From positions 3,339,001 through 3,403,000 of the forward strand of contig NZ_QWDD01000001.1 in the NCBI RefSeq assembly GCF_003722355.1: a stretch of 64,000 nt of DNA, read 5' to 3'. Position numbers and translations under genes: made by a program. Of the stretch, positions 42,997-58,482 are shown piece after piece. Origin of the DNA: Methylocystis hirsuta (GTDB lineage: Bacteria > Pseudomonadota > Alphaproteobacteria > Rhizobiales > Beijerinckiaceae). Position 1 is the stretch's first letter. Each line of letters begins with the position of its first letter. The notes under the pieces are model-generated. The model had not been told where the DNA came from, did not search any database, and worked only from the letters and a program-made list of their open reading frames with translations.

Positions 42997-45411
42997 TCAG
43001 AACTTGAGTTTGACGCCTCCCGTGAAAGCGCGCGGTTGGCCAGCGAGGATGCCGGCGCCCTGCGCCGTCGCCAGCCCGCCGGTCGGCCAGACGAGCGGCG
43101 TTTGTATCGGGGTGCCGGCAAGGAGCGAGTTGGCCATCACGAATGCGCCGGAGACATAAGTCCGATTGAAAATGTTCGAGACGTCGAAATAGAGTTCGAT
43201 ATTCTTGATATAGAAGTCTGCGATGTCGTGATTATAGTGAGCGTTGAGATTGACTAGGCTGTAGCTCGGCACAGTGGTGAAATTGGCGTTGTCGATCGTA
43301 TAGTCGCTTTTGAAAATATATTCGACATAGGCGCCGAGACCGGCGAGATCGCCGTGCGGCTGATCATATCCATAGCGCAGCGTCAGCGTATGCGGCGGCA
43401 CATTGGGAATCCGGTTTCCGGCGCGATTATATAAGACTGCTCGCCCGCCGACTGTTCCAAGATCATCCCAAAAATTGGTGACGAACTGGTTGTTGAACGT
43501 ATAGGCCGCGATCAGCCGCCATCCCTCGAAGGGCCGCCAATCGGCGTTGAGTTCGACGCCGCGGTGGAGAGAGGCGGGAATGTTCTGCTGATAAGACACA
43601 AGACCATTGCTCAACGTCAAGATTTCATTGCGGTGCCATTCATTGAAGCCGGTCACGCTGAAATTAAGCTCGGGGCTCGGCGTCCAGTCGATCCCGAGAT
43701 CGACGCCCATATTGGTCTGGGCCTTCAGCGGATTTTGTCCGACACCGTTTCGCGTATTGGTCAGGAAGACGAATGTCGGCGTGCTGTAGCCCGTCGCGTA
43801 ACGCGCCCGCACTTGCCACTCGGGGTTATAGCGATAAGTGAGCGACGCTTCGGGCGCCGTGTTCCAATAGTCGTTGTCGACGGCGACCTGGGTAGGAAAT
43901 CTGGGCGCCAGATTGGTCGGGTAATTATAGGCGGTATTGACGCCCCAGACTCGATTCCAGTTGGAGCTGAAGCCGATGACGCCGGTCAGGCCCGGCGCCA
44001 AAGCAATCTCTTCGCGCGCACGCAAACTGATGTTCGACGTGTAGGAATCCATCTTGCCGATCTGCGCGCCAATCGCGCCGCTGTACCACATATTGGGGAT
44101 CTGGTTAAAGGTCGGATTGGCGGTTTTGGCGTTGTTATAGAAGAACTGGAGGAAATGCGTCGCCGGAAATCCGAAGATCGGAACGTGACTGGTAATGTCG
44201 GTCTGCGCGGTGATGCCCACCGTCGGACCTCTCAGGGCCACCGGGCCGCCCTGGCCGTTCGGTCCAAAGATCGGCGGCGGCCAAGATGCGCTAATGTTAT
44301 CGAGATAGTCGTATGTGAACTGCGACCGCCACGTGGTGTCGTTATTAAAATCATGTTCGAACTGAACGCCGCCGATCTGTCTGAGGATGTTCGCATGCGT
44401 GCCAAGCTGCCAGACGCTTTGGCGAACGAGCGGGGTCGTTATTCCTTTCGCCGGCACGTTGAGATTGTTGCACAAATTGAGGTTCAGAGAGGTCGGGATG
44501 GCGCAACCGTTTTGAAAAGGATTGAGGTAGAAGACCGTTAAATTTTCTCGGTTGATGTACTGGGACCTCATGTCGTTGACGATATATTTCAGGGTGACGC
44601 GATCGGCAGGGGTCACCTCCCATCTGCCAAGAAACTTGGCTTGTTTGCCTGAGTAGGCGCCGTGATCTACAAAGCCGTTGCCATTGAGGTCGGAGGCGAA
44701 AAACGACAGATCGAAGCCGCCGAGCACGGCGTCCTTCACCGCCTTGCCGACGCGGACGTAATTGTTGACATAGCCGAAGCTGCCAAATTCCGAACCGGTA
44801 TGGACGCCGTCGATTTCGGCGCCGGTGAAGGAACGGAAATTGATCGCGCCGTCATAGGCGTAATTGCCGAAGAGCGCGGACGAGGGGCCGCGATAGACGT
44901 CGACGGCCGCAAAGGCGTGCGGATCGAGCAGGTCGGTGCGGCCATTGCCGTCGGCCGTCATGATCGGAAAACCGTCTTCCCACAGCATGATGTTGCGGAT
45001 GCCGAATGGAAAGGAGGATCCAAGACGGTTTCCGGACCCGCGAATCGAGATCATAAGATCGCGCGCATTATTGCCTTGCTGCACGGAGACGCCGGGGCTG
45101 TATTCCAACACCCTCCGGACATCCGCCAGGGGCGTCGGCCTGAGGAACTTGGTGTTGACGATCGTCACCGTCTCGCCAGGCGGATCACGATAGATCGGCA
45201 GTTTCGCGCGGACGGGATTAAAGCCGGGCGCGATTCCTTCTTCGCCCGCCGTCGACTCTCTTACAGCCGGAGTCGCGACCGGCGGTGGCCGCCGTGCGGC
45301 GCCGATCGTGATCTGCGGAAGCGCCTGCTGCGCGTGCGCGGCGGAGGCGGCGGACAAGAGCGCGAGAGCGCTGAGCGCTGCGCCATGCATCAATTTCGAC
45401 CGGGACGTCAT
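42997..45411 (-). CDS. mbnT: TonB-dependent receptor, methanobactin-uptake candidate (MbnT-like)
   Basis: The 804-residue outer-membrane receptor has a signal peptide and a plug with VRRVLEYSPGVSVQQGNNAR and FAAVDVYRGPSSALFGNYAY. The 22-strand barrel ends AFTGGVKLKF with a C-terminal Phe. Only about 65 residues precede the plug, so the STN signalling domain used by sigma/anti-sigma coupled receptors is absent. Position between mbnH and mbnE, all in one direction, makes it the likely importer of copper-methanobactin. The specific substrate is inferred from context. Confidence 0.85.
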   Translation of the reverse strand: MTSRSKLMHGAALSALALLSAASAAHAQQALPQITIGAARRPPPVATPAVRESTAGEEGIAPGFNPVRAKLPIYRDPPGETVTIVNTKFLRPTPLADVRRVLEYSPGVSVQQGNNARDLMISIRGSGNRLGSSFPFGIRNIMLWEDGFPIMTADGNGRTDLLDPHAFAAVDVYRGPSSALFGNYAYDGAINFRSFTGAEIDGVHTGSEFGSFGYVNNYVRVGKAVKDAVLGGFDLSFFASDLNGNGFVDHGAYSGKQAKFLGRWEVTPADRVTLKYIVNDMRSQYINRENLTVFYLNPFQNGCAIPTSLNLNLCNNLNVPAKGITTPLVRQSVWQLGTHANILRQIGGVQFEHDFNNDTTWRSQFTYDYLDNISASWPPPIFGPNGQGGPVALRGPTVGITAQTDITSHVPIFGFPATHFLQFFYNNAKTANPTFNQIPNMWYSGAIGAQIGKMDSYTSNISLRAREEIALAPGLTGVIGFSSNWNRVWGVNTAYNYPTNLAPRFPTQVAVDNDYWNTAPEASLTYRYNPEWQVRARYATGYSTPTFVFLTNTRNGVGQNPLKAQTNMGVDLGIDWTPSPELNFSVTGFNEWHRNEILTLSNGLVSYQQNIPASLHRGVELNADWRPFEGWRLIAAYTFNNQFVTNFWDDLGTVGGRAVLYNRAGNRIPNVPPHTLTLRYGYDQPHGDLAGLGAYVEYIFKSDYTIDNANFTTVPSYSLVNLNAHYNHDIADFYIKNIELYFDVSNIFNRTYVSGAFVMANSLLAGTPIQTPLVWPTGGLATAQGAGILAGQPRAFTGGVKLKF

Positions 45412-46621: not shown

Positions 46622-47697
46622 TTCGTGGCCTCCACGCGGAAAATCTTCGTCGACGCGCCGGAGGACTGGCCGGCGTCATTGGCGTCAGGCGCGGTTTCCT
46701 TGAGCCGAAGCCCGAGATTTTCGAACATCGGCGCGCATTCGGGATCGGCCGGACCGCTCATGCAGCCGGTGGAGAATCCCTGGTCTTTCCCAAGATCGAT
46801 GCCGGCGAAGAGCGGCTTCAGATCGAGAACGACGCGCTGCCGCCCCGAATCGAAGGACGAGAGTTTCACGGGAATGCGATTTGGATTGGCGCAGGAGGTG
46901 ATTTCGCCTTTCGTCGCGTCGCCGCGACAGCCCGTCGAGCCAAGGTGCAGCATCCAGGTCGAGACTGTGATCGTCCCATCCGAGTTGACGCGCAGCGGCG
47001 CCGCCTTGGGCGCGTCGGCCATCGCCGGCGCGCCGCCGTCGGACTTGTCGCCGGACTTGTCGCCTTGCGCGCCTGCGCCATTCGCTGCGTCCGCCGGGCT
47101 TTTCGGCTTGGGCGGCGGACGGGTCACGCCGCCCTCGGGATCGACTTCGATCTTTATGAATTTGCGGCCAGCCTGCCAATTCCACGTCATCGACTGAAGA
47201 TCGAGCGGCGCGGGCGCGGTGGCGAAATTCGAGTGGTTGAGAATGACGTCCTTGCCGTCCTTGTCCTTGACGACGCTGGGAACGCCAATGACGAAGCTGA
47301 ACCCTTTGTAGCGGCCGCGCGGCGCCGATCCCTTGATCGTGTCGTTGACGTCGGCGCTCCCGACGCATTTGCCAGTCTTGTTTTCGAAATCGAGCAGGGC
47401 AAGGTTGGCGTATTGCCAGTCGTTTTGTTCGAGTTCGATGGGAACTTCATGGCCGGCGGCGTCGATCAGAACCGGCGCGGCGATGTAGAACCTGGCGTCG
47501 TGGAGCTGCGCCGGCTGTCCGCCGGTTCCGAGCCCGGCGATGTCGTGGCCGCATTCGACCGGTTGATCGCCCGCCGCAAGCGCAAAGCGTATCGCAACCG
47601 GCTGTCTTTCGCTCGCGTCGGGTTTGTTGGCGGCATGCGCGACGCTAATCGCGGCAAGCCCGCCGATGGCGACGGCAAATCGGTTGAATGCGCTCAT
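46618..47697 (-). CDS. mbnP: MbnP copper-binding partner of MbnH
   Basis: The 359-residue protein (ATG 47697) has a signal peptide (AVAIGGLAAISVAHA) and the MbnP/DUF layout QPVAIRFALAAGDQPVECGH, LHDARFYIAAPVLIDAAGHE, GRYKGFSFVIGVPS, WNWQAGRKFIKIEVD and GSTGCRGDATKGEITSCANP. A low-complexity Asp/Gly/Ala insert of about 40 residues (GAGAQGDKSGDKSDG) separates two halves. Conserved Trp residues (NDWQYAN, TWNW, STWMLHLG) include the candidate for kynurenine formation. Located directly before mbnH. Confidence 0.9.
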   Translation of the reverse strand: MSAFNRFAVAIGGLAAISVAHAANKPDASERQPVAIRFALAAGDQPVECGHDIAGLGTGGQPAQLHDARFYIAAPVLIDAAGHEVPIELEQNDWQYANLALLDFENKTGKCVGSADVNDTIKGSAPRGRYKGFSFVIGVPSVVKDKDGKDVILNHSNFATAPAPLDLQSMTWNWQAGRKFIKIEVDPEGGVTRPPPKPKSPADAANGAGAQGDKSGDKSDGGAPAMADAPKAAPLRVNSDGTITVSTWMLHLGSTGCRGDATKGEITSCANPNRIPVKLSSFDSGRQRVVLDLKPLFAGIDLGKDQGFSTGCMSGPADPECAPMFENLGLRLKETAPDANDAGQSSGASTKIFRVEATK

Positions 47698-47855
47698 GAT
47701 TACTCTCCTGTCGACGACGAGCGTTGAGATTTGTCTTGGCCACGCGCAAGCGGCGACGACCGGCGGCGCGTGTGAAAACACGCGCGGCGCACATCAAACG
47801 CGAGGGATTGGCGAGTGGGGTCGAGGACCCGGCAGCCGGCCGCTAACGCGCTCTC

Positions 47856-48269
47856 TTAGGAGAGAAGCGACGGGGGTGCGCGAGAGAGCCTATTTCTGGG
47901 CCATTGCGTGGTCGGCGGCGCGATATCGCGCTCTTCCGGCCAAAGAGGGGGAGTCTCAGACAAGGGCGCCAGCACGAGAACGACGGCGGATAAGAGAACC
48001 TTTGCTCCGAGGTCGTCGCTTCGGTCGCTGAGAAAGCAAGCCATGCAGTGCATGTGCTGAACGTGCGGAGCCTTGCCGTCGCCATTGGTTTGGTCGGCGC
48101 AAAGCTCATTCGCCATCGCTACGGGAGAGCTTAGGAACGCGCTGAAATCGCCGCCGTGGCGTCCGTGGGAAAAAATAAGACCCAAAGCTTGTTGAAACAG
48201 CAGACAAGCGACGGCGGCCGCCACAATCGGACGCATGAATCGCCGCATTTGTTTCTTGTCTTGCCGCAT
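47856..48269 (-). CDS. Small exported Cys/His DUF2946-like protein upstream of mbnP
   Basis: The 137-residue product, when started at 48269 (other in-frame ATGs at 48248 and 48236 are possible), has a hydrophobic N-terminal segment (PIVAAAVACLLFQQALGLIF). A Cys/His motif PHVQHMHCMACFLSD and a second hydrophobic segment follow, and it ends SRAPPSLLS. The CMACF block and RAPP end fit the DUF2946 type and match the two genes flanking the first TonB locus. It probably leads the mbnP-mbnH-receptor-mbnE transcript. Function unknown; copper binding is an inference. Confidence 0.65.
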   Translation of the reverse strand: MRQDKKQMRRFMRPIVAAAVACLLFQQALGLIFSHGRHGGDFSAFLSSPVAMANELCADQTNGDGKAPHVQHMHCMACFLSDRSDDLGAKVLLSAVVLVLAPLSETPPLWPEERDIAPPTTQWPRNRLSRAPPSLLS

Positions 48270-48673
48270 ATCGAATTCTGAGTGCACAAGGATTAACTTG
48301 TCAACGACGGTTATCGCCCAACTTTTGCAATATTTTGAACTGTTGCGCTGCAGCCACACTTGGTCTTTGCAATTTGTCTTTGTCGTTCAATTGACGGGCG
48401 CGAAGAGGCCGTGCGCTCCGACATCACTCCAAATGGCGGCGCGACCGCCGGCGCAGCATCTCTCGCACAGACCTTTCGTCCGTAATGAAGATCCTGTGGC
48501 GACTTGAGACCGCGCAGCAGGGCCGCCGACCGTTGCTGTTTGTCAACGCGTCTCCGCCTTGTCGGACCCTAATCGTTCCGCCATGCGCGCATCGTATAAG
48601 GAGTTTCCGTATTGCCGCGCACGAGTTTCGCGCCTATGATCCGCGCACCGTAGGCAATGGTTGGCGGCAATCC
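48270..48673. promoter_or_regulatory. Divergent promoter region of the methanobactin locus
   Basis: These 404 bases lie between the minus-strand arm (DUF2946-like gene, mbnP, mbnH, receptor, mbnE) and the plus-strand arm. The first part is AT-richer than its surroundings (around 48285-48390). No convincing gene, RNA or long inverted repeat was seen. Copper-responsive promoters for both arms are expected here, but I could not identify -35/-10 elements or an ECF promoter by eye. Confidence 0.5.
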
Positions 48674-49009
48674 ATGCTCGTTCGGCTCATTCTTTTCGTT
48701 GCGATATTGCTGCAAGTCGCTGGCGTTTCGACTGTCGCCGCGCGCGCTCAATCTCATTCTATGTCGTTCCGGGCCGTTGTCTGCAAAAGCGATGCGATTC
48801 CCGCGGCGCCTCACGCGCCGGGCGAACACGACGGCTCTTGCTCGGACTGCATCGCGTGCTGCAACGCTCAGCCGCAGATCTTCTGCGTCTATGATCAGGT
48901 TGCGCGCCTGTCCTTTCCAACGGCGCGAATCAGCGTTCTCGCGCTTCCGATCCTTCCCGTTTCCCGAACGCCGTCGGCAACGCCGCCAGCGCGCGCCTCC
49001 CCCGTCTAA
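48674..49009 (+). CDS. Small exported Cys-rich protein at the head of the mbn plus-strand arm
   Basis: The 111-residue protein (ATG 48674) has a signal peptide (LILFVAILLQVAGVSTVAA) and the cluster SCSDCIACCNAQPQIFCVYD near residues 55-74. Five cysteines within 18 residues suggest metal or disulfide chemistry. The C-terminal Pro/Arg/Ala-rich tail resembles DUF2946-like proteins. It lies 135 bases before the ECF sigma gene on the same strand. No function is known. Confidence 0.65.
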   Translation: MLVRLILFVAILLQVAGVSTVAARAQSHSMSFRAVVCKSDAIPAAPHAPGEHDGSCSDCIACCNAQPQIFCVYDQVARLSFPTARISVLALPILPVSRTPSATPPARASPV

Positions 49010-49144
49010 AGCCACGGCCGTACGTCCGCGCCGGAAGCAATGACGTCCGCGGATCGAAACCACGCATCGCCGATGCCCCTGGGGCCGCTCGGCGTGATGC
49101 GTTTTGAATATTCGGCGCGCTTGGAGACAAGCGGGGAGGCGCTG

Positions 49145-49972
49145 ATGCAGAAGTCCCATGAGACGATCGACCGACTGTTTAGAAGCCATCATCGCGATCT
49201 GATAACGCGGGCGCGCCGCGTGATCGGCTCGGGAGACGCAGAAGACCTGGTCCAGGAAGCCTATCTCAAAATGCTGGAAAGCGACCGTGGCGAACTGATT
49301 TCGAATGCGCGCGGCTATGTGTCGAAGATGACGTGCACGCTCGCGATCGACAATCTTCGAAGGCAAAGAACGCACGCTCGAGCGCTTGCCGAAGACGGCG
49401 CATGGTTCCAGTCGCCCGCTCGAGACGCGCAAATCACGTCGGCCCTCGACGCATTCGGCCTGGCGCAGGACGTTCAAGCAGCCCTGGCGCGGCTGCCGCG
49501 ATGCTGTCGTCAGATATTCCTGATGAGTCGGATTCTAGGTTTCAGCCATTCGGAGATCGTACAGGAACTCGGCGTTTCCTTGAGGACGGTCAATCGCAGC
49601 CTGGGTCGGGCGCTCGAGCATTTCGATCGCGCCTTCGATATTCCGCGGCCGAGCGACCCCATGGGCGCGCCGCCTCTCGAGGCGGCGGCTTCGCCGCGCG
49701 AGCGCTTGGCGGCGCCATCGGTCGCCCGGGATGCGACGGACATAACAGTCCCCTCGGCCCGAAAAAAATCTCGCCGCATGCTGTCCGATTTTTGCGAGCC
49801 CGCTCGTCATACCATTCGGGTTCCGCGTTCTGCGGCGCCCGTCTGGACTTTCCAGACGAACTCAAAAGGGGAGGCCCCTATGACCATCCGTATCGCCAAG
49901 CGCATTACTCTTAACGTTGTTGGCCGCGCCGGCGCCATGTGCGCTTCGACCTGCGCCGCCACGAACGGCTAA
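49145..49972 (+). CDS. mbnI: ECF sigma factor (MbnI-like), frame open through mbnA
   Basis: The ECF sigma-70 protein starts at ATG 49145 behind a strong GGGGAGG site; a start at 49040 is also open. Region 2 (DAEDLVQEAYLKMLESD) and region 4 (LPRCCRQIFLMSRILGFSHS, then EIVQELGVSLRTVNRSL) are complete within about 165 residues. Beyond that the frame stays open for about 80 residues of Pro/Ala/Arg-rich sequence and enters the mbnA frame, ending only at the mbnA stop. The usual stop is therefore missing and a sigma-MbnA fusion of 275 residues could be read. Alternatives are a lost stop, an indel, or chance openness of GC-rich spacer. No anti-sigma (FecR/MbnR) gene follows. Confidence 0.82.
   Translation: MQKSHETIDRLFRSHHRDLITRARRVIGSGDAEDLVQEAYLKMLESDRGELISNARGYVSKMTCTLAIDNLRRQRTHARALAEDGAWFQSPARDAQITSALDAFGLAQDVQAALARLPRCCRQIFLMSRILGFSHSEIVQELGVSLRTVNRSLGRALEHFDRAFDIPRPSDPMGAPPLEAAASPRERLAAPSVARDATDITVPSARKKSRRMLSDFCEPARHTIRVPRSAAPVWTFQTNSKGEAPMTIRIAKRITLNVVGRAGAMCASTCAATNG
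49640..49879 (+). other. Spacer between sigma-factor domains and mbnA
   Basis: This stretch encodes the non-conserved tail of the sigma frame. It holds a hairpin CCGCCTC-TC-GAGGCGG near 49670-49686 and a run of seven As near 49764-49770. A dedicated mbnA promoter could lie between these and the ribosome-binding site, but none was identified with confidence. Confidence 0.35.
49864..49874 (+). promoter_or_regulatory. Ribosome-binding site of mbnA
   Basis: AAAAGGGGAGG ends 5 bases before the mbnA ATG at 49880. This near-perfect Shine-Dalgarno sequence shows that mbnA is translated from its own start rather than only as the tail of the sigma frame. Confidence 0.8.
49880..49972 (+). CDS. mbnA: Methanobactin precursor peptide MbnA
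   Basis: The 30-residue precursor has a leader (MTIRIAKRITLNVVGRAGA) and a putative core MCASTCAATNG. The leader and the core C-A-S-T-C-A-A-T-N-G resemble the Methylocystis (group II) precursors known to me. The two Cys would be converted by MbnBC into two heterocycle/thioamide pairs that bind Cu(I), and the Thr between them is the expected sulfation site. The core here starts with Met where other Methylocystis sequences I recall have Arg; cleavage position is not visible. It is followed by mbnB after 77 bases. Confidence 0.93.
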   Translation: MTIRIAKRITLNVVGRAGAMCASTCAATNG

Positions 49973-50049
49973 GGACGGTCAGTTTGCGCCGTCGGCCCCC
50001 GGCCTGCGGCGCAAGCGACGTTCGGCCAGCAAAACGAAGGCGACAATAG

Positions 50050-50877
50050 ATGCGGCTTGGCTTCAATTTCACGCTCGGCGACACCTATGACATGGTTCAG
50101 AGGCTGCTCGCGGAAGGGCATATCGACTACTGCGAATTCCTGATCGACAATTTTTTCTGCGTCGATCCGGAGGAACTGGCCAAGGCGTTCGATTGTCCCA
50201 TCGGCCTGCATATTATGTATTCAAAGTTTCTAGAAGCCAATCGGCCGACGCTGGTCGATTTTGCGGCGCGGCTTCGAGACTACATCGATGTGCTGAATCC
50301 GATGTACGTCTCCGACCACATTCTGCGCTTCACTCATGAAGGGCGCGCTTTTTTTCACTTGGGTGAAATCGACTATTCCACCGAATATGAATCCGTCCGC
50401 GACCGGGTCGTCGCCTGGCAGGAAATCGTCGGACACCGCATCCATTTTGAAAATTATCCCTCCATCATGGACGGGGGCAGAGAGGCGCCCGCTTTCTTCG
50501 AGCGCCTGATGAAGGAAACCGGCGCCGGCGTGCTGTTCGACGCGTCCAACGCCGTTTGCTCCCATCGCAATTGCGGGACGCCGTTCGAAGCCTGGCGTAA
50601 CGTCATCGCCGAGGCCCGGCATTTCCATGTCGCGGGCTACAGGCATTCCCTGGTCGAGCCTTTCATCTCGCTGGACACTCACGCAGAGGCTCTGGCGCCG
50701 GATACGCTCGCCTTCCTAAAAGATTTCCGATCGGTCTTCGACAAGCCCGGCGCAACAATGACCTATGAGCGCGACGACCGGATCGAATTTGACGATGTCG
50801 TCGCTGATCTGAAGTTGTTGCGAGAGCTGTTCGGCCAACCGGAAGAAAGGCGTCATGATCTTGCTCTCTCTGCCTAG
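50050..50877 (+). CDS. mbnB: Methanobactin biosynthesis oxidase MbnB (DUF692)
   Basis: MbnB, with MbnC, is an iron-dependent enzyme that oxidises precursor cysteines to oxazolone and thioamide groups. The 275-residue TIM-barrel protein shows DUF692 residues typical of metal binding: His54, His90 (YVSDHILRF), Glu134 (HFENYP), Asp164 and Asn167 (FDASNAVCS), His193 (HFHVAGY), Asp209/His211 (LDTHAE) and Glu240. Its end overlaps the mbnC start by 23 bases. Numbering is from this sequence; ligand assignment is by family analogy. Confidence 0.96.
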   Translation: MRLGFNFTLGDTYDMVQRLLAEGHIDYCEFLIDNFFCVDPEELAKAFDCPIGLHIMYSKFLEANRPTLVDFAARLRDYIDVLNPMYVSDHILRFTHEGRAFFHLGEIDYSTEYESVRDRVVAWQEIVGHRIHFENYPSIMDGGREAPAFFERLMKETGAGVLFDASNAVCSHRNCGTPFEAWRNVIAEARHFHVAGYRHSLVEPFISLDTHAEALAPDTLAFLKDFRSVFDKPGATMTYERDDRIEFDDVVADLKLLRELFGQPEERRHDLALSA

Positions 50878-51436
50878 TCGAACTGATCGCGATCTCTACC
50901 CGGCGCTGATGTCGCCGGAACTGAACGCAAAATATCCTACGGACCAAAAGGCCTTCGTGCGGATCGACGTGAGCCTGCGCATGTATTGGCACACGCTCTT
51001 CGACATCTGCCCCGAACTGTTGGAGCTTTCCGGTCTCGACGGGATGTCGATCTTCCGGCCCTTTATGGCCTGGGCCGGAGAGAAGAAGCTCGCCTTTGAC
51101 TGGTCCTATTATCTGTGGGTCTACGCTTGGCTGCGCCAATCGCCGTTCAAAGAGCGGTTGCTCGCCGACGACAAATATCTGCGGTCGGTCATGGCGGCGT
51201 CGGCCGCGCGTTGGGCGATCCTCGATCGCGGCAGAGATTGCGGAATCGTCATCGGATGCGCAGACACGACGAATCTTGTCATCGGCTGGAAATGCCGCAG
51301 CGTTCGTTTGGGACGCGAGATCGAACTTATCGAACCCGAGGAGCCGCTGCCGGCGCCTCCGGATCTTTTCGGCTACTTTACGCTGCAGTCCTTTGAACTT
51401 GACATATTTCCGGGGTGGCAGAGCCTGGCGCGATGA
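50855..51436 (+). CDS. mbnC: Methanobactin biosynthesis partner MbnC
   Basis: The 193-residue protein is the recognition partner of MbnB, forming the MbnBC complex that binds the MbnA leader. Recognisable stretches are VRIDVSLRMYWHTLFDICPE, FDWSYYLWVYAWLRQSPFKE and VIGWKCRSVRLGREIEL. It lies within the overlapping mbnB-mbnC-mbnM run: its start overlaps mbnB, and its stop overlaps the mbnM ATG (ATGA at 51433-51436). Confidence 0.95.
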   Translation: MILLSLPSRTDRDLYPALMSPELNAKYPTDQKAFVRIDVSLRMYWHTLFDICPELLELSGLDGMSIFRPFMAWAGEKKLAFDWSYYLWVYAWLRQSPFKERLLADDKYLRSVMAASAARWAILDRGRDCGIVIGCADTTNLVIGWKCRSVRLGREIELIEPEEPLPAPPDLFGYFTLQSFELDIFPGWQSLAR

Positions 51437-52734
51437 CAAGCGCGCCGCTGTGGCGCGGATACTGGCACCTATTCGCCAGCACGTCCGCGGCCGCCTTTAT
51501 TATGCAAATCGATCTCGCCATGGTCGCGAGACTGGGCGGCCGCGCGTCGGGAGCTTATGCGATTCTGATGCGCATCGCGTTGCTCGATGTCGCCCTCACC
51601 ATCGCTTGCGCCGCCGTTGCGGCGATTGCGCTCGGCCATGCGCAAAAGAATGGCGAGACCGCCGAGGCAATCGAAAAGACTTGCGCGCTCTCCCTCGCGC
51701 TTGGCGTCGCGACGGCGATTTTCGGCTTCTTCGCCTATCCGATCTTTCTTGACGCCCTGATGGGCGACGCCGCAGCCGCTCCCTATATCGGCGCCCCTAT
51801 CGTTTGGCTCGTTGCCGGCACGCCTTTTCGCGTTCTTTCGAATACGCAAGGATTCTTGTTGCACGCCCTCGGACGCGGCGGCTCGGCGCTCACATGGAAA
51901 CTCGCGGAAATTCCCGTGAAAGCCGGGGCCAACGTCCTTTTCATGCAGGCCCTCGGCTTTGGTTTCGCGGGATGTTTTCTCGCGAGCTGCATCGTTTCGG
52001 CCATCGCTTCGATTTGGCTGTGGAGTCGGCTGGAAGCGCATGGCGCGCGTAGAATACGCGTCCCGGAAATCGCGTTCGTCCGCTGTTTTCTAAGCGGGAC
52101 GTTTTGGGAAGCGTTGCGCGTGCTCTCCCCGCGGGCGGCGATGCTCTTCACGCTGGCCCTCTTTTCGCTCCCCTGGCAGAACGGCGCCAACGGCCAGCGT
52201 CTCGACTCATTTGCCGCCGCCCAAACTTTCATGCTGTTCGTAATTGGTCCGCTGATTACGCTGACGCGCTTTCTCGCCATCCGCCTTCCGGCGAAAGCTC
52301 AACTCGACTGGACGCCGGCGCTCGCGCCAGTGGTGCGGCTCGGCGCGCCAATCACACTTGCCGCCGCAGTCATACTGCTGTTCGGGCGCGATTGGATCGG
52401 CGCGACTCTTTACCGTCAACATGGAGCCTGGTGGTCCGTATTCGTCGCCTGCTTGGCGCTCTCCCTGCCAATCCGCTTCGTCGGCAGCATCGTCCGAGGA
52501 CTGACGCTCGCGCAGAGCTCATTCGCAGAACTGACCTCTGTCGATGTGCTTGCGCAGTGGCTCATCGCGCCGCTGTTCATTCTATTTGGACTCGCCGTGA
52601 ACCGTCCGGAGATCGCCTATCAATCTCTGATCTGGCCTGAAGCCCTCGCCGTTTTCTTGATCTGGCTTAACCTTCGATCCGCGCCCGAGGAGCCGGCTGG
52701 CGTCCCGTTGCGCTTGAAAGGACGTGTCCAATGA
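51433..52734 (+). CDS. mbnM: MATE-family exporter MbnM
   Basis: The 433-residue integral membrane protein has about 12 hydrophobic helices and a MATE-type N-terminal region (GYWHLFASTSAAAFIMQIDL, RLGGRASGAYAILMRIALLD). It is the probable exporter of finished methanobactin. Start/stop overlaps of four bases on both sides (with mbnC and mbnF) show tight coupling. The substrate is inferred from operon position. Confidence 0.93.
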   Translation: MTSAPLWRGYWHLFASTSAAAFIMQIDLAMVARLGGRASGAYAILMRIALLDVALTIACAAVAAIALGHAQKNGETAEAIEKTCALSLALGVATAIFGFFAYPIFLDALMGDAAAAPYIGAPIVWLVAGTPFRVLSNTQGFLLHALGRGGSALTWKLAEIPVKAGANVLFMQALGFGFAGCFLASCIVSAIASIWLWSRLEAHGARRIRVPEIAFVRCFLSGTFWEALRVLSPRAAMLFTLALFSLPWQNGANGQRLDSFAAAQTFMLFVIGPLITLTRFLAIRLPAKAQLDWTPALAPVVRLGAPITLAAAVILLFGRDWIGATLYRQHGAWWSVFVACLALSLPIRFVGSIVRGLTLAQSSFAELTSVDVLAQWLIAPLFILFGLAVNRPEIAYQSLIWPEALAVFLIWLNLRSAPEEPAGVPLRLKGRVQ

Positions 52735-54377
52735 GCGTGGAACGAGTCCCTGTTCTCATTGTCGGCGCAGGCTATGCCGGTCTGTCCGCGGCGACGCTCC
52801 TCGCCTGGCGCGGCGTTCCTTGCATCCTCGTGGAGCGACGCGCGTCAACGTCGCTGCTGCCGAAAGCGCACGGGCTGAACCGGCGCAGCATGGAGGTTCT
52901 GCGCGTCGTCGATGGCCTGGAGGATGCGCTGTTCGCAGCAAGCCGCACCGGCGCAAACGATACAACCGTGATCATTGCGGAGACCGTTACGGGTCCGGCG
53001 ATTGAGACGCTGGTGACCAAGATGTCGCTCGATGCGACTCGCGTGTCGCCGAGCAAGATATGCACCGCGGGCCAGGACCGGGTCGAGCCCGTGCTGCTGC
53101 GCTTCGCCCGCAGGAACGGCGCCGATGTCAGATTTTCGACGGCGCTGGCGCGCTTCTCCCAAGGAGAGGACGGCGTTGAAGCGATTTTGCGCGACGAGGC
53201 GTCGGGACGAGAGACGACGGTTCTTGCGGACTACATGATCGCCGCCGACGGCGCCGGCGGAACGATCCGCGACGCCGGCGCCGTGAAGATGGAAGGTCCG
53301 GGAGTGATCGCGGATGCGATGTCGGTGCTGTTCGAGGCCGATCTCGACGCAATCCTGCGGAGAGACGGGTTTGCTCTCTATTATTTTCGCAACAAGGCGT
53401 TCAGCGGCGCCTTCGTCACTTGCGACGAGCCCAATCGCGGCCAGATCAACATCGAATATGATTCCTCCCGCGATCAGGCATCCGATTTCGACGAAGAACG
53501 ATGCCGAGAACTGGTTCGACAATCTCTTGGCGTCCCTGATCTCGCGGTCAAGATTCTCGACATTCGTCCTTGGCGGATGGCCGCTCTTCTTGCCGATCGC
53601 ATGTCCTTTGGCCGGGTGTTTCTTGCCGGCGACTCCGCGCATATCGTGCCGCCGGTCGGCGGCTTGGGCGGACAAACCGCGATCCAGGACGCCGCGGACT
53701 TAGCTTGGAAGCTGGCGCTTGTCGTGAATGGCCATGCCGCTCCCACGCTGCTCGATAGCTATCAGATTGAGCGCAAGCCCGTGGCGCGAATCGCGATCGC
53801 AAGAGCCTTCGCCAATTACGTCGAGCGTCTCCTGCCCGATCGTCAGGAGCTGCGCATTCGGGAAGACGAATACGGTCTGCTCGAAACCGCGATCGGCTAT
53901 CGGTATCGCTCCGACGCGATCATCGCCGACGAAATCGACGACGGCGCAGCGGTCGAAGACCCTCTTCGTCCGAGCGGCGCGCCGGGAACGCGCCTCGCGC
54001 ATGTCTGGCTGCGGCGGGGCGAGGAGACGATCTCCTCTCACGATCTGATCGGACGCGGTTTCATGCTCTTCGCCGGTCCGGACGGCGGCGACTGGATCGA
54101 GGCGGCGCAGCGTGTCGGCCTGCGTTCAGGCGCGCCGCTTGGCGTCTGCCGCTTGGGATTTGACGTCGACGATCCCGAAGGGCTGCTTCTGCCGCGTCTC
54201 GGCGTTTCGCCAGAAGGCGCGCTGCTCGTGCGGCCCGACGGATTCATCTGCTGGCGTTCGCGAGGCCGAAGCCCCGATCCGCTCGCGACGCTCGAAGCGC
54301 GTTTTGCGCGCGTGCGCGGCTTCGACACGCGCCAATCCAGCGGAAGTCTCAAGGCAACGCTCGTGAGCGCAACCTAG
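52731..54377 (+). CDS. mbnF: FAD-dependent monooxygenase MbnF
   Basis: The 548-residue flavoprotein has the GxGxxG dinucleotide motif VLIVGAGYAGLSAATLLAWR, the DG motif YMIAADGAGGTIRDAG and the FAD-ribityl motif FLAGDSAHIVPPVGGLGGQT, all of group A aromatic hydroxylases. In Methylocystis-type clusters MbnF is proposed to alter one heterocycle of the product. It overlaps mbnM and precedes mbnS by 55 bases. Its exact reaction was not derived here. Confidence 0.92.
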   Translation: MSVERVPVLIVGAGYAGLSAATLLAWRGVPCILVERRASTSLLPKAHGLNRRSMEVLRVVDGLEDALFAASRTGANDTTVIIAETVTGPAIETLVTKMSLDATRVSPSKICTAGQDRVEPVLLRFARRNGADVRFSTALARFSQGEDGVEAILRDEASGRETTVLADYMIAADGAGGTIRDAGAVKMEGPGVIADAMSVLFEADLDAILRRDGFALYYFRNKAFSGAFVTCDEPNRGQINIEYDSSRDQASDFDEERCRELVRQSLGVPDLAVKILDIRPWRMAALLADRMSFGRVFLAGDSAHIVPPVGGLGGQTAIQDAADLAWKLALVVNGHAAPTLLDSYQIERKPVARIAIARAFANYVERLLPDRQELRIREDEYGLLETAIGYRYRSDAIIADEIDDGAAVEDPLRPSGAPGTRLAHVWLRRGEETISSHDLIGRGFMLFAGPDGGDWIEAAQRVGLRSGAPLGVCRLGFDVDDPEGLLLPRLGVSPEGALLVRPDGFICWRSRGRSPDPLATLEARFARVRGFDTRQSSGSLKATLVSAT

Positions 54378-54432: not shown

Positions 54433-55440
54433 ATGTCCATCCTTTCGCCGGAGCTCCACGCGCCGTCCCAGCCGGAGCCGATTCCCGCGGTTGATCCAAA
54501 GCGGCTCGAAACGATCCAGACCCCCTACCAGGACTTCAACCGGCTATCGCGCGCCAGCGGCGCTTTGGAGACCCTGCCCCTTCGGGCCAAGCGTCAATTC
54601 CGCTCCTATTATTTTTTCAATCCGCCAAAATGGCGGGTCTGGGCGCGTTCGCTCGGCTCCAGCGAACGCATGGCGCCGTCCTTCGCATCGATCGGCGCGG
54701 TGCGCTCCGGCACGTCTTTCCTCTCCTCCTATATTTTCCAGCATCCGCACGTCGTGCTGCCGCTGTCGAAGGAAATCTCCTTCACGGACACGATGCGCGA
54801 ACTCATGGCGCATTTTCCGACGCTCGCGGCGCAAAGGGCGGCGGAGCGGCGAAACGGCGGCGCGATCACCGGCTACTGCACGCCGGTCATGCCCAATCCC
54901 CTCTGGATTTTTGTGGCCCAGTCGATGTTTCCAGACATGCGCATCATCTGCGTTCTGCGTGATCCGGTGGAGCGCACCTTTTCGCACTGGCGATGGGATC
55001 AGAAGCGTTTCAGCCGCAAGATGCAGGATCCGCACTGGAAGGGCTTTCCGGATTTCGAAACCTTGATCGAAGCGGAAAAGGCGACGATACGCGGTGGCGG
55101 CATGGAGCCGCACGCGTTTTCCGGCGCGCGCGCCGGCTATCTGCGCCACAGCATCTACGCGCCCTTTCTGCGCCTGCTGTTCGAAAAATTCGGCAGAGAC
55201 CGCGTTTTCATCGTCGATGCGGCGGAATTTTTTCGAGACCCGCGATCGACGGCGAAGGAGATTTACGCCTTTCTCGGCCTTCCCAAAGTCGAGCCGCTCG
55301 TGATCGAGGAGCAAAACCCGGGTCCGCCCGGAAAGCTTGACGACGGCGTTCGGGCGAATTTGGCCGCGTTCTTCCGGCCCTACAATGAAGAGCTCTACGC
55401 GCTGCTTGATAAGGATTTCGGCTGGGGCGCCGCCCGATAA
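54433..55440 (+). CDS. mbnS: PAPS-dependent sulfotransferase MbnS
   Basis: The 335-residue protein has the 5'-phosphosulfate binding loop [15 protein letters not shown] (near residues 86-100) and the 3'-phosphate site [16 protein letters not shown] (about 173-188). In Methylocystis methanobactins a Thr is sulfated, and MbnS is the expected enzyme; the core here has a Thr between the two Cys. It is the last gene of the mbn plus-strand operon. Confidence 0.93.
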
Positions 55441-56805: not shown

Positions 56806-57564
56806 GTGGCGCAAAGCTCGGATATCGAATGGACTGACGCGACGTGGAACCCGGTCACCGGTTGCACGAAGATCGGGCGCGGCTGCGACAACTGCTACGC
56901 TGAGCGTTTTGCCGAGCGGTGGCGGGGAATTGCAGGCCATCCGTACGAACAAGGATTTGACCTCACCCTTTGGCCAAGCCGACTGATGCAGCCCGAGGCT
57001 TGGAAAAAGCCCCGTATGATCTTCGTAAACTCGATGAGTGACCTGTTTCACAAAGAGGTGGAACGCGCTTTCATAGACCAAGTCTTTGACGTGATGGAGC
57101 GTGTCGACTGGCACGTCTATCAAGTCCTAACGAAGCGAAGCTCCCTGATGCGTGCCTATCTTCACAAGCGCTACGGTAGCTCCGCAGTTCCCTCCCACAT
57201 TTGGCTGGGTGTGTCTGTCGAGGACGAACAGCACAAAGGCCGGATTGACCATCTTAAGCAAGTAAACTCTGATGCAAGGTTTATTTCGTTTGAGCCTCTT
57301 CTAAGCCCACTCCATGCAATTGATTTGCGCGGAATCGCTTGGGCGATTGTCGGCGGTGAGAGTGGACCGCGTGCGCGACCCATGCAGGAGGCTTGGGTTC
57401 ACCAAATCCGCGACGCGTGCGAGCGCGATAGTGTCGCCTTTTTCTTTAAGCAATGGGGAGGTGCCCGCCCAAAATCAGGGGGCAGGCTTTTAGACGGCGA
57501 GGAATGGAATGGCTTTCCTTGGCAGATTGTACCGAAATCGATTATCGAGCAGTTGTCACTTTAA
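56806..57564 (+). CDS. Three-Cys-motif protein (phage Gp37/Gp68, DUF5131 family)
   Basis: The 252-residue protein begins at GTG 56806 after AAGGAGG. It carries the diagnostic SDIEWTDATWNPVTGCTKIG followed by GCDNCYAERFAERW, whose cysteines form the three-Cys motif, likely an Fe-S or radical-SAM-like site. FVNSMSDLFHKEVERAFIDQ, WLGVSVEDEQHKGRIDHLK and VGGESGPRARPM are further family marks. Composition is AT-richer with less biased codons than its neighbours, suggesting transfer. The next gene is its classic partner TcmP. Function is unresolved; phage or defence context is commonly seen. Confidence 0.93.
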   Translation: MAQSSDIEWTDATWNPVTGCTKIGRGCDNCYAERFAERWRGIAGHPYEQGFDLTLWPSRLMQPEAWKKPRMIFVNSMSDLFHKEVERAFIDQVFDVMERVDWHVYQVLTKRSSLMRAYLHKRYGSSAVPSHIWLGVSVEDEQHKGRIDHLKQVNSDARFISFEPLLSPLHAIDLRGIAWAIVGGESGPRARPMQEAWVHQIRDACERDSVAFFFKQWGGARPKSGGRLLDGEEWNGFPWQIVPKSIIEQLSL

Positions 57565-57579: not shown

Positions 57580-58482
57580 TTGAAGAATTCGCACGTCAAA
57601 AACACTGTTGGGCCTTGGGCACGGCAAAAACTTGACGGGCTTGAAGCATACCTCGACGCATATACGACGGCGCTTTCGAAGCAAAAATTTGACCTGTACT
57701 ATATCGACGCTTTCGCTGGATCAGGAAAATCACGCTTACGTGGATCTTCGGACGACGACGACCTGCGAAATTCTCCGTTCCTTGACGAGGCGTTCGGAGC
57801 CAGCGAAGTTGAATTCATAGAAGGCTCGCCTCGTCGGGCGCTAGGCCTTTCCAGGCCATTCAAAAAATACTTCTTCTTCGACGCTGAACCCGTTCGAGCT
57901 CAGATTTTGGAGACAGTTGGCAAAGAATATCCGGGAAGAGAATTTTTAGTCGAAATCGGCGATGGTAACGAATTAATTCGCAGCTTGCTTCCTCGGATCG
58001 ACTCGCCGGCGACACGGGGGGTTGCGTTTCTTGATCCGTATGGACAGCATCTTCATTGGCGAACAATTGAAGCCTTAGCCGCAACAAAGCGCTTCGAAGT
58101 CATCATAAACTTTCCACTAGGAATGGCGATCAATCGTCTTATCACAAGATCCGGCGACATTCCGGCGAACTGGCGCAGGGACCTCGATGCATGCTTTGGC
58201 GGCAATGACTGGGATCGCCTCGTTTATGACGACACGCCAACCCTTTTTGGCGATACAGAACGACAAAAAGCTGAGAATGCGGGGCAGCGCCTGCTCGAAT
58301 ACTATTTGGGGCGTCTTAAGGAGATATTTGGTCACGCCGCGACGCCAAGCCTCGTCAGAAACACGCGCGGGGCCCCAATCTATTACATGCTCTGGGCCGG
58401 ACCGCATCCACTTGGCCTTAAAATCGCCGACCATGTTTTGAAGCTGGGAGAGCGCATCGCCTCAAGTCGAAAAAAAACCTAA
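57580..58482 (+). CDS. tcmP: Three-Cys-motif partner protein TcmP
   Basis: The 300-residue protein starts at TTG 57580, 15 bases after the three-Cys-motif gene. TcmP features are VGPWARQKLDGLEAYLDAYT, YYIDAFAGSGKSRLRGS, RGVAFLDPYGQHLHW, EVIINFPLGMAINRL and a methyltransferase-like Rossmann layout (YFFFDAEPVRAQILETVGKE). Its codon use is AT-leaning and atypical for the region. The pair recurs on mobile islands; what it modifies is unknown. Confidence 0.92.
   Translation: MKNSHVKNTVGPWARQKLDGLEAYLDAYTTALSKQKFDLYYIDAFAGSGKSRLRGSSDDDDLRNSPFLDEAFGASEVEFIEGSPRRALGLSRPFKKYFFFDAEPVRAQILETVGKEYPGREFLVEIGDGNELIRSLLPRIDSPATRGVAFLDPYGQHLHWRTIEALAATKRFEVIINFPLGMAINRLITRSGDIPANWRRDLDACFGGNDWDRLVYDDTPTLFGDTERQKAENAGQRLLEYYLGRLKEIFGHAATPSLVRNTRGAPIYYMLWAGPHPLGLKIADHVLKLGERIASSRKKT

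What the first reader, a model, noticed from the sequence alone, without database searches (positions are those of the whole stretch)
49145..49972. ECF sigma gene and methanobactin precursor share one unbroken reading frame
The sigma-factor frame has no stop after its region 4 and runs about 80 codons through the spacer, then exactly in phase through mbnA to the shared stop. mbnA also has its own strong ribosome-binding site. The cell could therefore make both MbnA and a sigma-MbnA fusion, or the sigma tail may be an accident of GC-rich spacer. If the phase is kept in relatives it would suggest feedback, for example modification of the sigma tail by MbnBC under copper limitation. An indel or lost stop is the simple alternative.
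Basis: partly seen in the sequence, partly recalled or inferred. Interest (0 to 1): 0.75.

Follow-up and report, generated by a model that had tools for sequence, protein, structure and literature searches.

The report
Sigma factor fused to copper-scavenger precursor
In Methylocystis methane-eating bacteria a gene-switch protein (an ECF sigma factor) runs without a stop into the precursor of the copper-scavenging peptide methanobactin; the join was noted in print in 2013, and here it is found in most relatives examined, with what looks like the methanobactin gene's own promoter lying inside the sigma gene.

Summary
One open frame (49145-49972) encodes an ECF sigma factor, an ~80-codon linker and all of MbnA, sharing one stop. 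It is not an accident of this genome: 18 of 19 Methylocystis loci of this type are open and in phase, including a clade at ~45% identity. Of 52 protein clusters at E<=1e-20, 48 end in an MbnA-like tail, three are frameshifted and one is unclear. The frame looks selected: in 16 main-clade genomes, 6 of 6 linker gap classes are multiples of 3, against 2 of 10 in the mbnA-mbnB spacer, and neutral simulation kept all 16 tips open in 0.3-0.5% of runs. New detail: the linker's second half is conserved as DNA. It holds an ECF-type promoter-like motif (TGTCCGA-N16-CGTC, 49782-49808) and two possible RNA hairpins before mbnA's own Shine-Dalgarno. So mbnA is probably expressed on its own, while any translated sigma carries an MbnA tail. 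The fusion is not new: Kenney & Rosenzweig 2013; NCBIfam NF040705. Whether the tail regulates sigma is untested.

The parts
49145..49972 (+). ECF sigma - linker - MbnA single open reading frame (275 aa, stop TAA)
   Evidence: translation without stop; NF040705 509.4 bits vs 350 cut-off; open in 18 of 19 genus loci
49133..49139 (+). GGGGAGG, probable Shine-Dalgarno of the sigma gene
   Evidence: read directly; GAGG stands before the ATG in 18 of 18 genes listed
49175..49369 (+). sigma region 2
   Evidence: PF04542 at residues 11-75
49466..49621 (+). sigma region 4
   Evidence: PF08281 at residues 108-159
49637..49750 (+). variable half of the linker (codons 165-202): fast-changing, frame-preserving gaps
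   Evidence: omega 0.70 (0.54-0.88); six gap classes, all multiples of 3, in 16 genomes
49751..49879 (+). conserved half of the linker (codons 203-245), overlapping the promoter-like motif and the mbnA leader
   Evidence: dS 0.20 vs 0.44 in sigma; codon positions similarly conserved
49782..49813 (+). ECF-type promoter-like motif TGTCCGA-N16-CGTC(ATACC), inferred promoter of mbnA
   Evidence: GTCCGA-N16-CGTC in 19 of 19 loci, 71-72 bases before mbnA; the motif also before unfused mbnA of G199 and G078, 2 of 8 unfused loci
49819..49839 (+). possible stem-loop 1 of the mbnA leader
   Evidence: fold of the window leader; pair counts 82.5% of cells
49840..49858 (+). possible stem-loop 2, CGTCTGG-N5-CCAGACG
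   Evidence: only exact match in window; 88.6% of cells paired; in the minimum-energy fold of 11 of 19 leaders, absent from that of 8
49870..49874 (+). Shine-Dalgarno GGAGG of mbnA
49880..49972 (+). mbnA, methanobactin precursor MTIRIAKRITLNVVGRAGAMCASTCAATNG
   Evidence: TIGR04071 57.6 bits vs 24
50050..50877 (+). mbnB
   Evidence: TIGR04159 448.4 bits vs 325
50855..51436 (+). mbnC
   Evidence: TIGR04160 291.2 bits vs 185
51415..52734 (+). mbnM, MATE exporter (start uncertain)
   Evidence: NF045578 544.6 bits vs 285
52731..54377 (+). mbnF, FAD monooxygenase
   Evidence: NF045577 887.6 bits vs 800
54433..55440 (+). sulfotransferase (mbnS-like)
   Evidence: PF13469, PF00685
42997..47781 (-). 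divergent mbnP-mbnH-TonB receptor (mbnT-like) genes; receptor shows plug and barrel hits only

Best explanation
The gene makes an ECF sigma factor whose C-terminus is a linker ending in a complete MbnA precursor. Nested in the same DNA is mbnA's own expression unit: an ECF-type promoter-like motif, a leader with two possible hairpins, a Shine-Dalgarno and a start codon, which supply free MbnA for methanobactin. Shown by computation: the frame, its retention in most of the sampled lineage, the nested motif. Near-inescapable: since sigma is under strong purifying selection (omega 0.15) and has no stop of its own, any translated sigma in these strains ends in MbnA. Inferred: the nested motif is a promoter used by this same sigma, so the operon is switched on from inside the gene of its own activator. 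Speculative, about 0.35: the tail is a regulatory extension. Its MbnA leader would dock MbnC/MbnB, or its modified core would bind Cu(I), so sigma is held back when free MbnA is short or copper is sufficient. This would replace the missing anti-sigma factor.
For: Open in 18 of 19 loci including a clade at ~45% identity; 48 of 52 clusters with an MbnA-like end. In 16 main-clade genomes 6 of 6 linker gap classes are multiples of 3 against 2 of 10 in the mbnA-mbnB spacer, one-sided Fisher p=0.0035. Neutral simulation: all 16 tips open in 0.3-0.5% of 400 runs from each of 4 roots, mean 6.9-8.6 tips with a stop; variable half alone 1.3-6.2%. Sigma omega 0.15, variable linker 0.70 (0.54-0.88); frame 0 lowest of three frames in each of five segments. 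The motif has one spacing in 19 of 19 loci, stands before mbnA in 2 unfused operons and has the ECF41 layout TGTCACA-n16-CGTC (PMC3426412, passages). dS is about halved over it. No FecR near the locus, one in the genome about 1.2 Mb away, and no receptor signalling domain among the Pfam hits, so the usual anti-sigma route is not seen. The MbnA leader recruits MbnBC by binding MbnC (PMC8888699, passages).
Against: Three natural breaks: P0041, P0042 and H62/P0043; P0045 is unclear. The linker is poorly conserved as protein, and the distant clade shares little of it. The gap test and the open frame are not independent: in-phase genes must have gaps summing to multiples of 3, and P0041/P0042 show that out-of-phase linker changes exist outside those 16 genomes. 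NG86 without transition bias may understate omega, and for the conserved linker the interval reaches 1.06. The motif has no experimental support; 6 of 8 unfused mbn loci lack it (best match 4-5 mismatches). Stem-loop 2 is absent from the minimum-energy fold in 8 of 19 leaders. I came across no expression, ribosome-profiling or protein data in the searches made. No call tests sigma-promoter recognition or tail modification.
Confidence: 0.6

Rival explanations
1. Passive overlap. A sigma gene landed or drifted against mbnA, lost its stop, and now reads through mbnA's promoter and leader. The tail is tolerated and does nothing.
For: Linker protein sequence is poorly conserved, and its conserved half can be explained by DNA/RNA signals. 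Breaks occur in P0041, P0042 and P0043. One GC-rich linker is open by chance in 6-50% of shuffles or Markov samples.
Against: Frame-preserving gaps and absence of stops across the 16 main-clade genomes are unlikely without selection; both the main and the distant clade keep the fusion.
Confidence: 0.27
2. The open frame is kept for translation, not for the protein tail. Ribosomes leaving sigma must run through the leader region to keep the long mRNA translated or to open the mbnA start; the MbnA end of sigma is a by-product.
For: Possible hairpins precede the mbnA SD. The P0041 and P0042 proteins run on in another frame and end in KPS, which fits a TGA overlapping the mbnA ATG (their DNA was not seen); 19 of 19 loci start ATGA, so that frame could couple sigma to mbnA.
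Against: Coupling does not need the same phase; a nested promoter would make most mbnA mRNA independent of sigma translation. Hairpin support is mixed.
Confidence: 0.15
3. Sequencing error, indel or recently lost stop in this genome.
Against: 17 other genomes have the same open frame; NCBIfam has a model for it.
Confidence: 0.01

Closest known systems
NCBIfam NF040705 sigma_mbnA, 'methanobactin precursor domain-containing sigma factor'
   Same: Same architecture end to end; 509.4 bits against a cut-off of 350
   Different: No difference; this gene is a member. The model's name says nothing of promoter, hairpins or selection
Methylocystis SC2 / M. rosea SV97 MbnA 'merged with' an ECF sigma factor (Kenney & Rosenzweig 2013, PMC3621798, passages)
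   Different: The paper left open whether the join is real beyond annotation, whether it is cleaved and whether sigma stays active; conservation and the nested motif are added here
CorE/CorE2 of Myxococcus (ECF238, formerly ECF44), sigma factors with a copper-sensing C-terminal extension (PMC8999054, passages)
   Same: ECF sigma without a nearby anti-sigma and with a cysteine-bearing, copper-linked C-terminal extension
   Different: CorE has a cysteine-rich domain and a CXC motif between regions 2 and 4; this one has a RiPP precursor and no cysteine at residues 81-107
ECF41 sigma factors (PMC3426412, passages)
   Same: Bipartite promoter layout TGTC...-n16-CGTC and a fused C-terminal regulatory domain
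   Different: -35 is TGTCACA in ECF41, TGTCCGA here; the only C-terminal domain found here is MbnA
Methylosinus MbnI-MbnR-MbnT (PMC3621798, PMC9601215, passages)
   Same: ECF sigma tied to methanobactin genes
   Different: There sigma is separate, has an anti-sigma MbnR and a receptor with a signalling domain; neither was found here

Membership tests
NF040705 sigma_mbnA | full-length score above curated cut-off | tested here: met
   509.4 vs 350 bits over residues 7-275
ECF sigma factor | regions 2 and 4 only | tested here: met
   PF04542 and PF08281 above cut-off; no other sigma-70 region (1 or 3) reported at E<=0.001
ECF sigma factor | binds RNA polymerase and a cognate promoter | not testable with these tools
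   needs biochemistry
Methanobactin precursor (MbnA) | TIGR04071 match beside mbnB and mbnC | tested here: met
   57.6 vs 24 bits; TIGR04159 and TIGR04160 downstream
CorE-like (ECF44/ECF238) | CXC motif between regions 2 and 4 (former ECF44 group) | tested here: not met
   no cysteine at residues 81-107 of P0001; feature from PMC8999054
CorE-like (ECF44/ECF238) | C-terminal extension controls activity by metal | not testable with these tools
   not tested; functional analogy only
ECF41 | -35 consensus TGTCACA | tested here: not met
   TGTCCGA here; spacing and CGTC agree
ECF41 | fused SnoaL-like regulatory domain (recalled) | tested here: not met
   no such Pfam hit in P0001
FecI/MbnI with FecR/MbnR | adjacent anti-sigma | tested here: not met
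   single FecR hit at C1:2174155, window is C1:3339001-3403000
FecI/MbnI with FecR/MbnR | receptor with N-terminal signalling domain | tested here: not met
   only plug and barrel reported for 42997-45411

The most novel reading that the evidence does not exclude
The sigma factor uses its own regulon's product as a built-in sensor. The MbnA tail is bound or modified by MbnBC and then binds Cu(I), turning sigma off, so a RiPP precursor serves both as secreted chalkophore and as regulatory domain of its activator, whose gene also contains the promoter it fires.
Probability: 0.28. Interest if true: 0.85.

Novelty: new member of a known kind. Interest (0 to 1): 0.5.

Why it matters
How Methylocystis controls methanobactin looks open: this locus lacks the anti-sigma and receptor signalling known from Methylosinus. 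The 2013 paper asked whether the sigma-MbnA join is real and what becomes of it. The evidence here says the join is largely kept, apparently by selection, and that mbnA carries its own start signals inside it. That turns the old question into a simple test: put a stop after region 4 and look at copper-dependent expression.

Tried and rejected
Rejected: assembly error or lost stop in this genome. Rejected: promoter-like motif or stem-loop 2 as a common repeat of the region; each has one exact match in the window (the stem pattern also has 11 matches with 2-3 mismatches, total 12 against 4.8 expected). In the genome the long motif has one exact match and one with 3 mismatches, and the reversed control also has one.

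Led nowhere: a wider regulon. The looser motif with up to 2 mismatches gave 53 forward and 58 reverse sites against 18 and 14 for the reversed control. I did not sort them by gene starts. The two exact sites are mbnA and C1:1009609, which I did not examine. No Rfam match at E<=1 in 47600-50100. Stem pairing: 85.3% of cells pair against 31-53% for slid versions, 7 of 500 shuffles as high; but two-sided changes are not in excess (1 pair, 407 of 500 shuffles as high), and the distant clade is misaligned by one base there. My statement that three of seven stem-2 pairs differ on both sides in that clade is my own reading. Stem-loop 2 is in the minimum-energy fold of 11 of 19 leaders only (counted by eye). 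Context of three nearest unfused sigma homologues gave nothing decisive; one lies before what looks by eye like a TonB receptor.

Own mistakes corrected: one search read minus-strand loci unturned and was redone. One search used one wrong stretch and was replaced.

Structure prediction (ticket) had not finished and is not used.

Literature searches. Papers opened by passages only: PMC3621798, PMC12452194, PMC9601215, PMC12668002, PMC12403871, PMC8999054, PMC3426412, PMC8888699. In those passages only PMC3621798 describes the fusion. Most subscription papers are not held; two papers asked for by id were not held.

Full report
WHAT IS THERE. The frame 49145-49972 is open: 275 aa, then TAA. It holds sigma region 2 (residues 11-75), region 4 (108-159) and MbnA (246-275). 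mbnA starts at 49880, has GGAGG at 49870-49874 and is followed by mbnB, mbnC, mbnM, mbnF and a sulfotransferase. A TonB receptor, mbnH and mbnP lie divergently upstream.

IT IS KNOWN. NCBIfam already has NF040705, 'methanobactin precursor domain-containing sigma factor', which this protein matches with 509.4 bits against a cut-off of 350. Kenney and Rosenzweig 2013 (PMC3621798; passages seen) wrote that MbnA of Methylocystis SC2 and M. rosea SV97 'appear to be merged' with an ECF sigma factor, at least by annotation, and that cleavage and activity were unclear. What follows adds to that.

IS THE PHASE KEPT? Of 39 genomes of the genus, 20 matched at E<=1e-20. One of these (G089) is a different sigma, 33% identical and aligned over 6-160 only, leaving 19 loci. 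In 18 (own included) the frame runs unbroken from sigma to MbnA. These include G151 and G177, only 44-45% identical, whose linker is a largely different protein sequence. Three other genomes of the genus, G199, G201 and G213, have more distant mbn operons (54-62% MbnB identity; four loci). In these four and in four further unfused loci of the family where an mbnA was found, the frame is open for only 3-128 codons before mbnA, too short for a fused sigma. In the protein collection, 52 clusters match at E<=1e-20: 47 end in a two-cysteine MbnA tail and one (P0040) in an MbnA tail with one core cysteine. P0041 and P0042 change frame in the linker, P0043 is H62, and P0045 (196 aa, 1,035-base contig) is unclear. 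A free sigma of 152 aa or more would have been within the length limits of that search. So the fusion is the rule in this lineage but not absolute.

IS IT SELECTED? In a nucleotide alignment of the 16 main-clade genes, not forced to codons, the six linker gap classes are 63, 24, 3, 12, 12 and 6 bases long, all multiples of 3 (a further 3-base gap at the start of the extract comes from a one-codon deletion of G219 before region 4). In the mbnA-mbnB spacer of 16 genomes (15 of those plus G215), 8 of 10 gap classes are not; one-sided Fisher p=0.0035. Caveats: classes are not strictly independent events; genes that are in phase must have gaps summing to a multiple of 3, so this restates the retained phase; and P0041 and P0042, outside the 16, do shift in the linker. 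Neutral evolution of open linkers along the tree leaves all 16 tips open in 0.3-0.5% of 400 runs from each of four roots, with 6.9-8.6 tips on average gaining a stop; for the variable half alone the figure is 1.3-6.2%. Omega is 0.15 (0.11-0.21) for sigma, 0.70 (0.54-0.88) for the variable linker and 0.63 (0.37-1.06) for the conserved linker. Frame 0 has the lowest omega of the three frames in each of five segments. These NG86 values ignore transition bias. Together: weak selection on the linker protein, clearer selection on its frame.

WHAT ELSE LIES IN THE LINKER. Codons 203-245 have dS 0.20 against 0.44 in sigma, with the codon positions similarly conserved, as expected of DNA or RNA signals. 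One is TGTCCGA-N16-CGTC (49782-49808): unique in the window, in 19 of 19 loci with one spacing, 71 or 72 bases before the mbnA ATG (G151 and G177 read AGTC instead of TGTC). It also stands 79 and 89 bases before mbnA in two operons without the fusion, G199 and G078. I looked at nine unfused loci; in eight an mbnA was found, and the six others of those have 4-5 mismatches at best. The pattern for that count was set after seeing the two sites. The layout equals that of ECF41 promoters, TGTCACA-n16-CGTC (PMC3426412, passages). I infer the promoter of mbnA. Which sigma uses it is not shown; self-use is the simplest guess. Downstream two hairpins are possible. The window leader folds with z -2.18 (3 of 200 shuffles as good). 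85.3% of cells pair, against 31-53% for slid versions, but two-sided changes are not in excess in that alignment, and stem-loop 2 is missing from the minimum-energy fold of 8 of 19 leaders. In G151 and G177 a hairpin with partly other letters sits at the same place. I hold the hairpins as tentative.

HOW IT LIKELY WORKS. Two products are expected: free MbnA from the nested start, and sigma-linker-MbnA from the long frame. The second follows if sigma is translated at all, since it has no other stop and is plainly under purifying selection. The genome's one FecR is about 1.2 Mb away and the receptor shows no signalling domain, so sigma has no visible partner to hold it. ECF factors with C-terminal extensions that replace an anti-sigma are known, CorE being copper-responsive (PMC8999054, passages). 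MbnA's leader is the docking strand for MbnC (PMC8888699, passages). A tail that reports MbnBC load or copper is thus plausible, about 0.35, but nothing here tests it. The passive and translational rivals remain open.

VERDICT. Real, largely conserved, apparently selected, and already in print as an observation. The added value is the evidence on frame retention, the nested promoter-like motif and the natural breaks, which make the function directly testable.

Noticed in passing
   Followed up: partly
P0040 (protein cluster): Fused MbnA tail keeps the leader, but the second core cysteine is absent (CGASSSGKNG).
   Followed up: no
P0041 and P0042 (protein clusters): The protein changes frame in the linker and ends in ...KPS; this fits a stop overlapping the mbnA ATG, which would couple the two genes (DNA not seen).
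   Followed up: partly
window 47856-48359 (-) and 48485-49009 (+): Two small ORFs with HxxC/CxxC-type motifs in the divergent region; no NCBIfam hit.
   Followed up: no
window 56806-57564 and 57580-58482 (+): TIGR04471-like protein (74.8 bits, below its cut-off of 355) beside a three-Cys-motif partner protein TcmP (TIGR04474, 185.4 vs 53 bits), downstream of the mbn genes.
   Followed up: no
L108 (G201) and L023 (G161), upstream of mbnA: A different shared inverted-repeat-like motif, TCTTCCG...CGGAAGA, precedes mbnA in these unfused operons (by eye).
   Followed up: no
L023 (G161), upstream of mbnA: The frame before this unfused mbnA is open for 128 codons; what it encodes was not examined.
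   Followed up: no
L090 and L091 (G177): Two identically scoring distant homologues of the sigma factor on two contigs of one genome.
   Followed up: no
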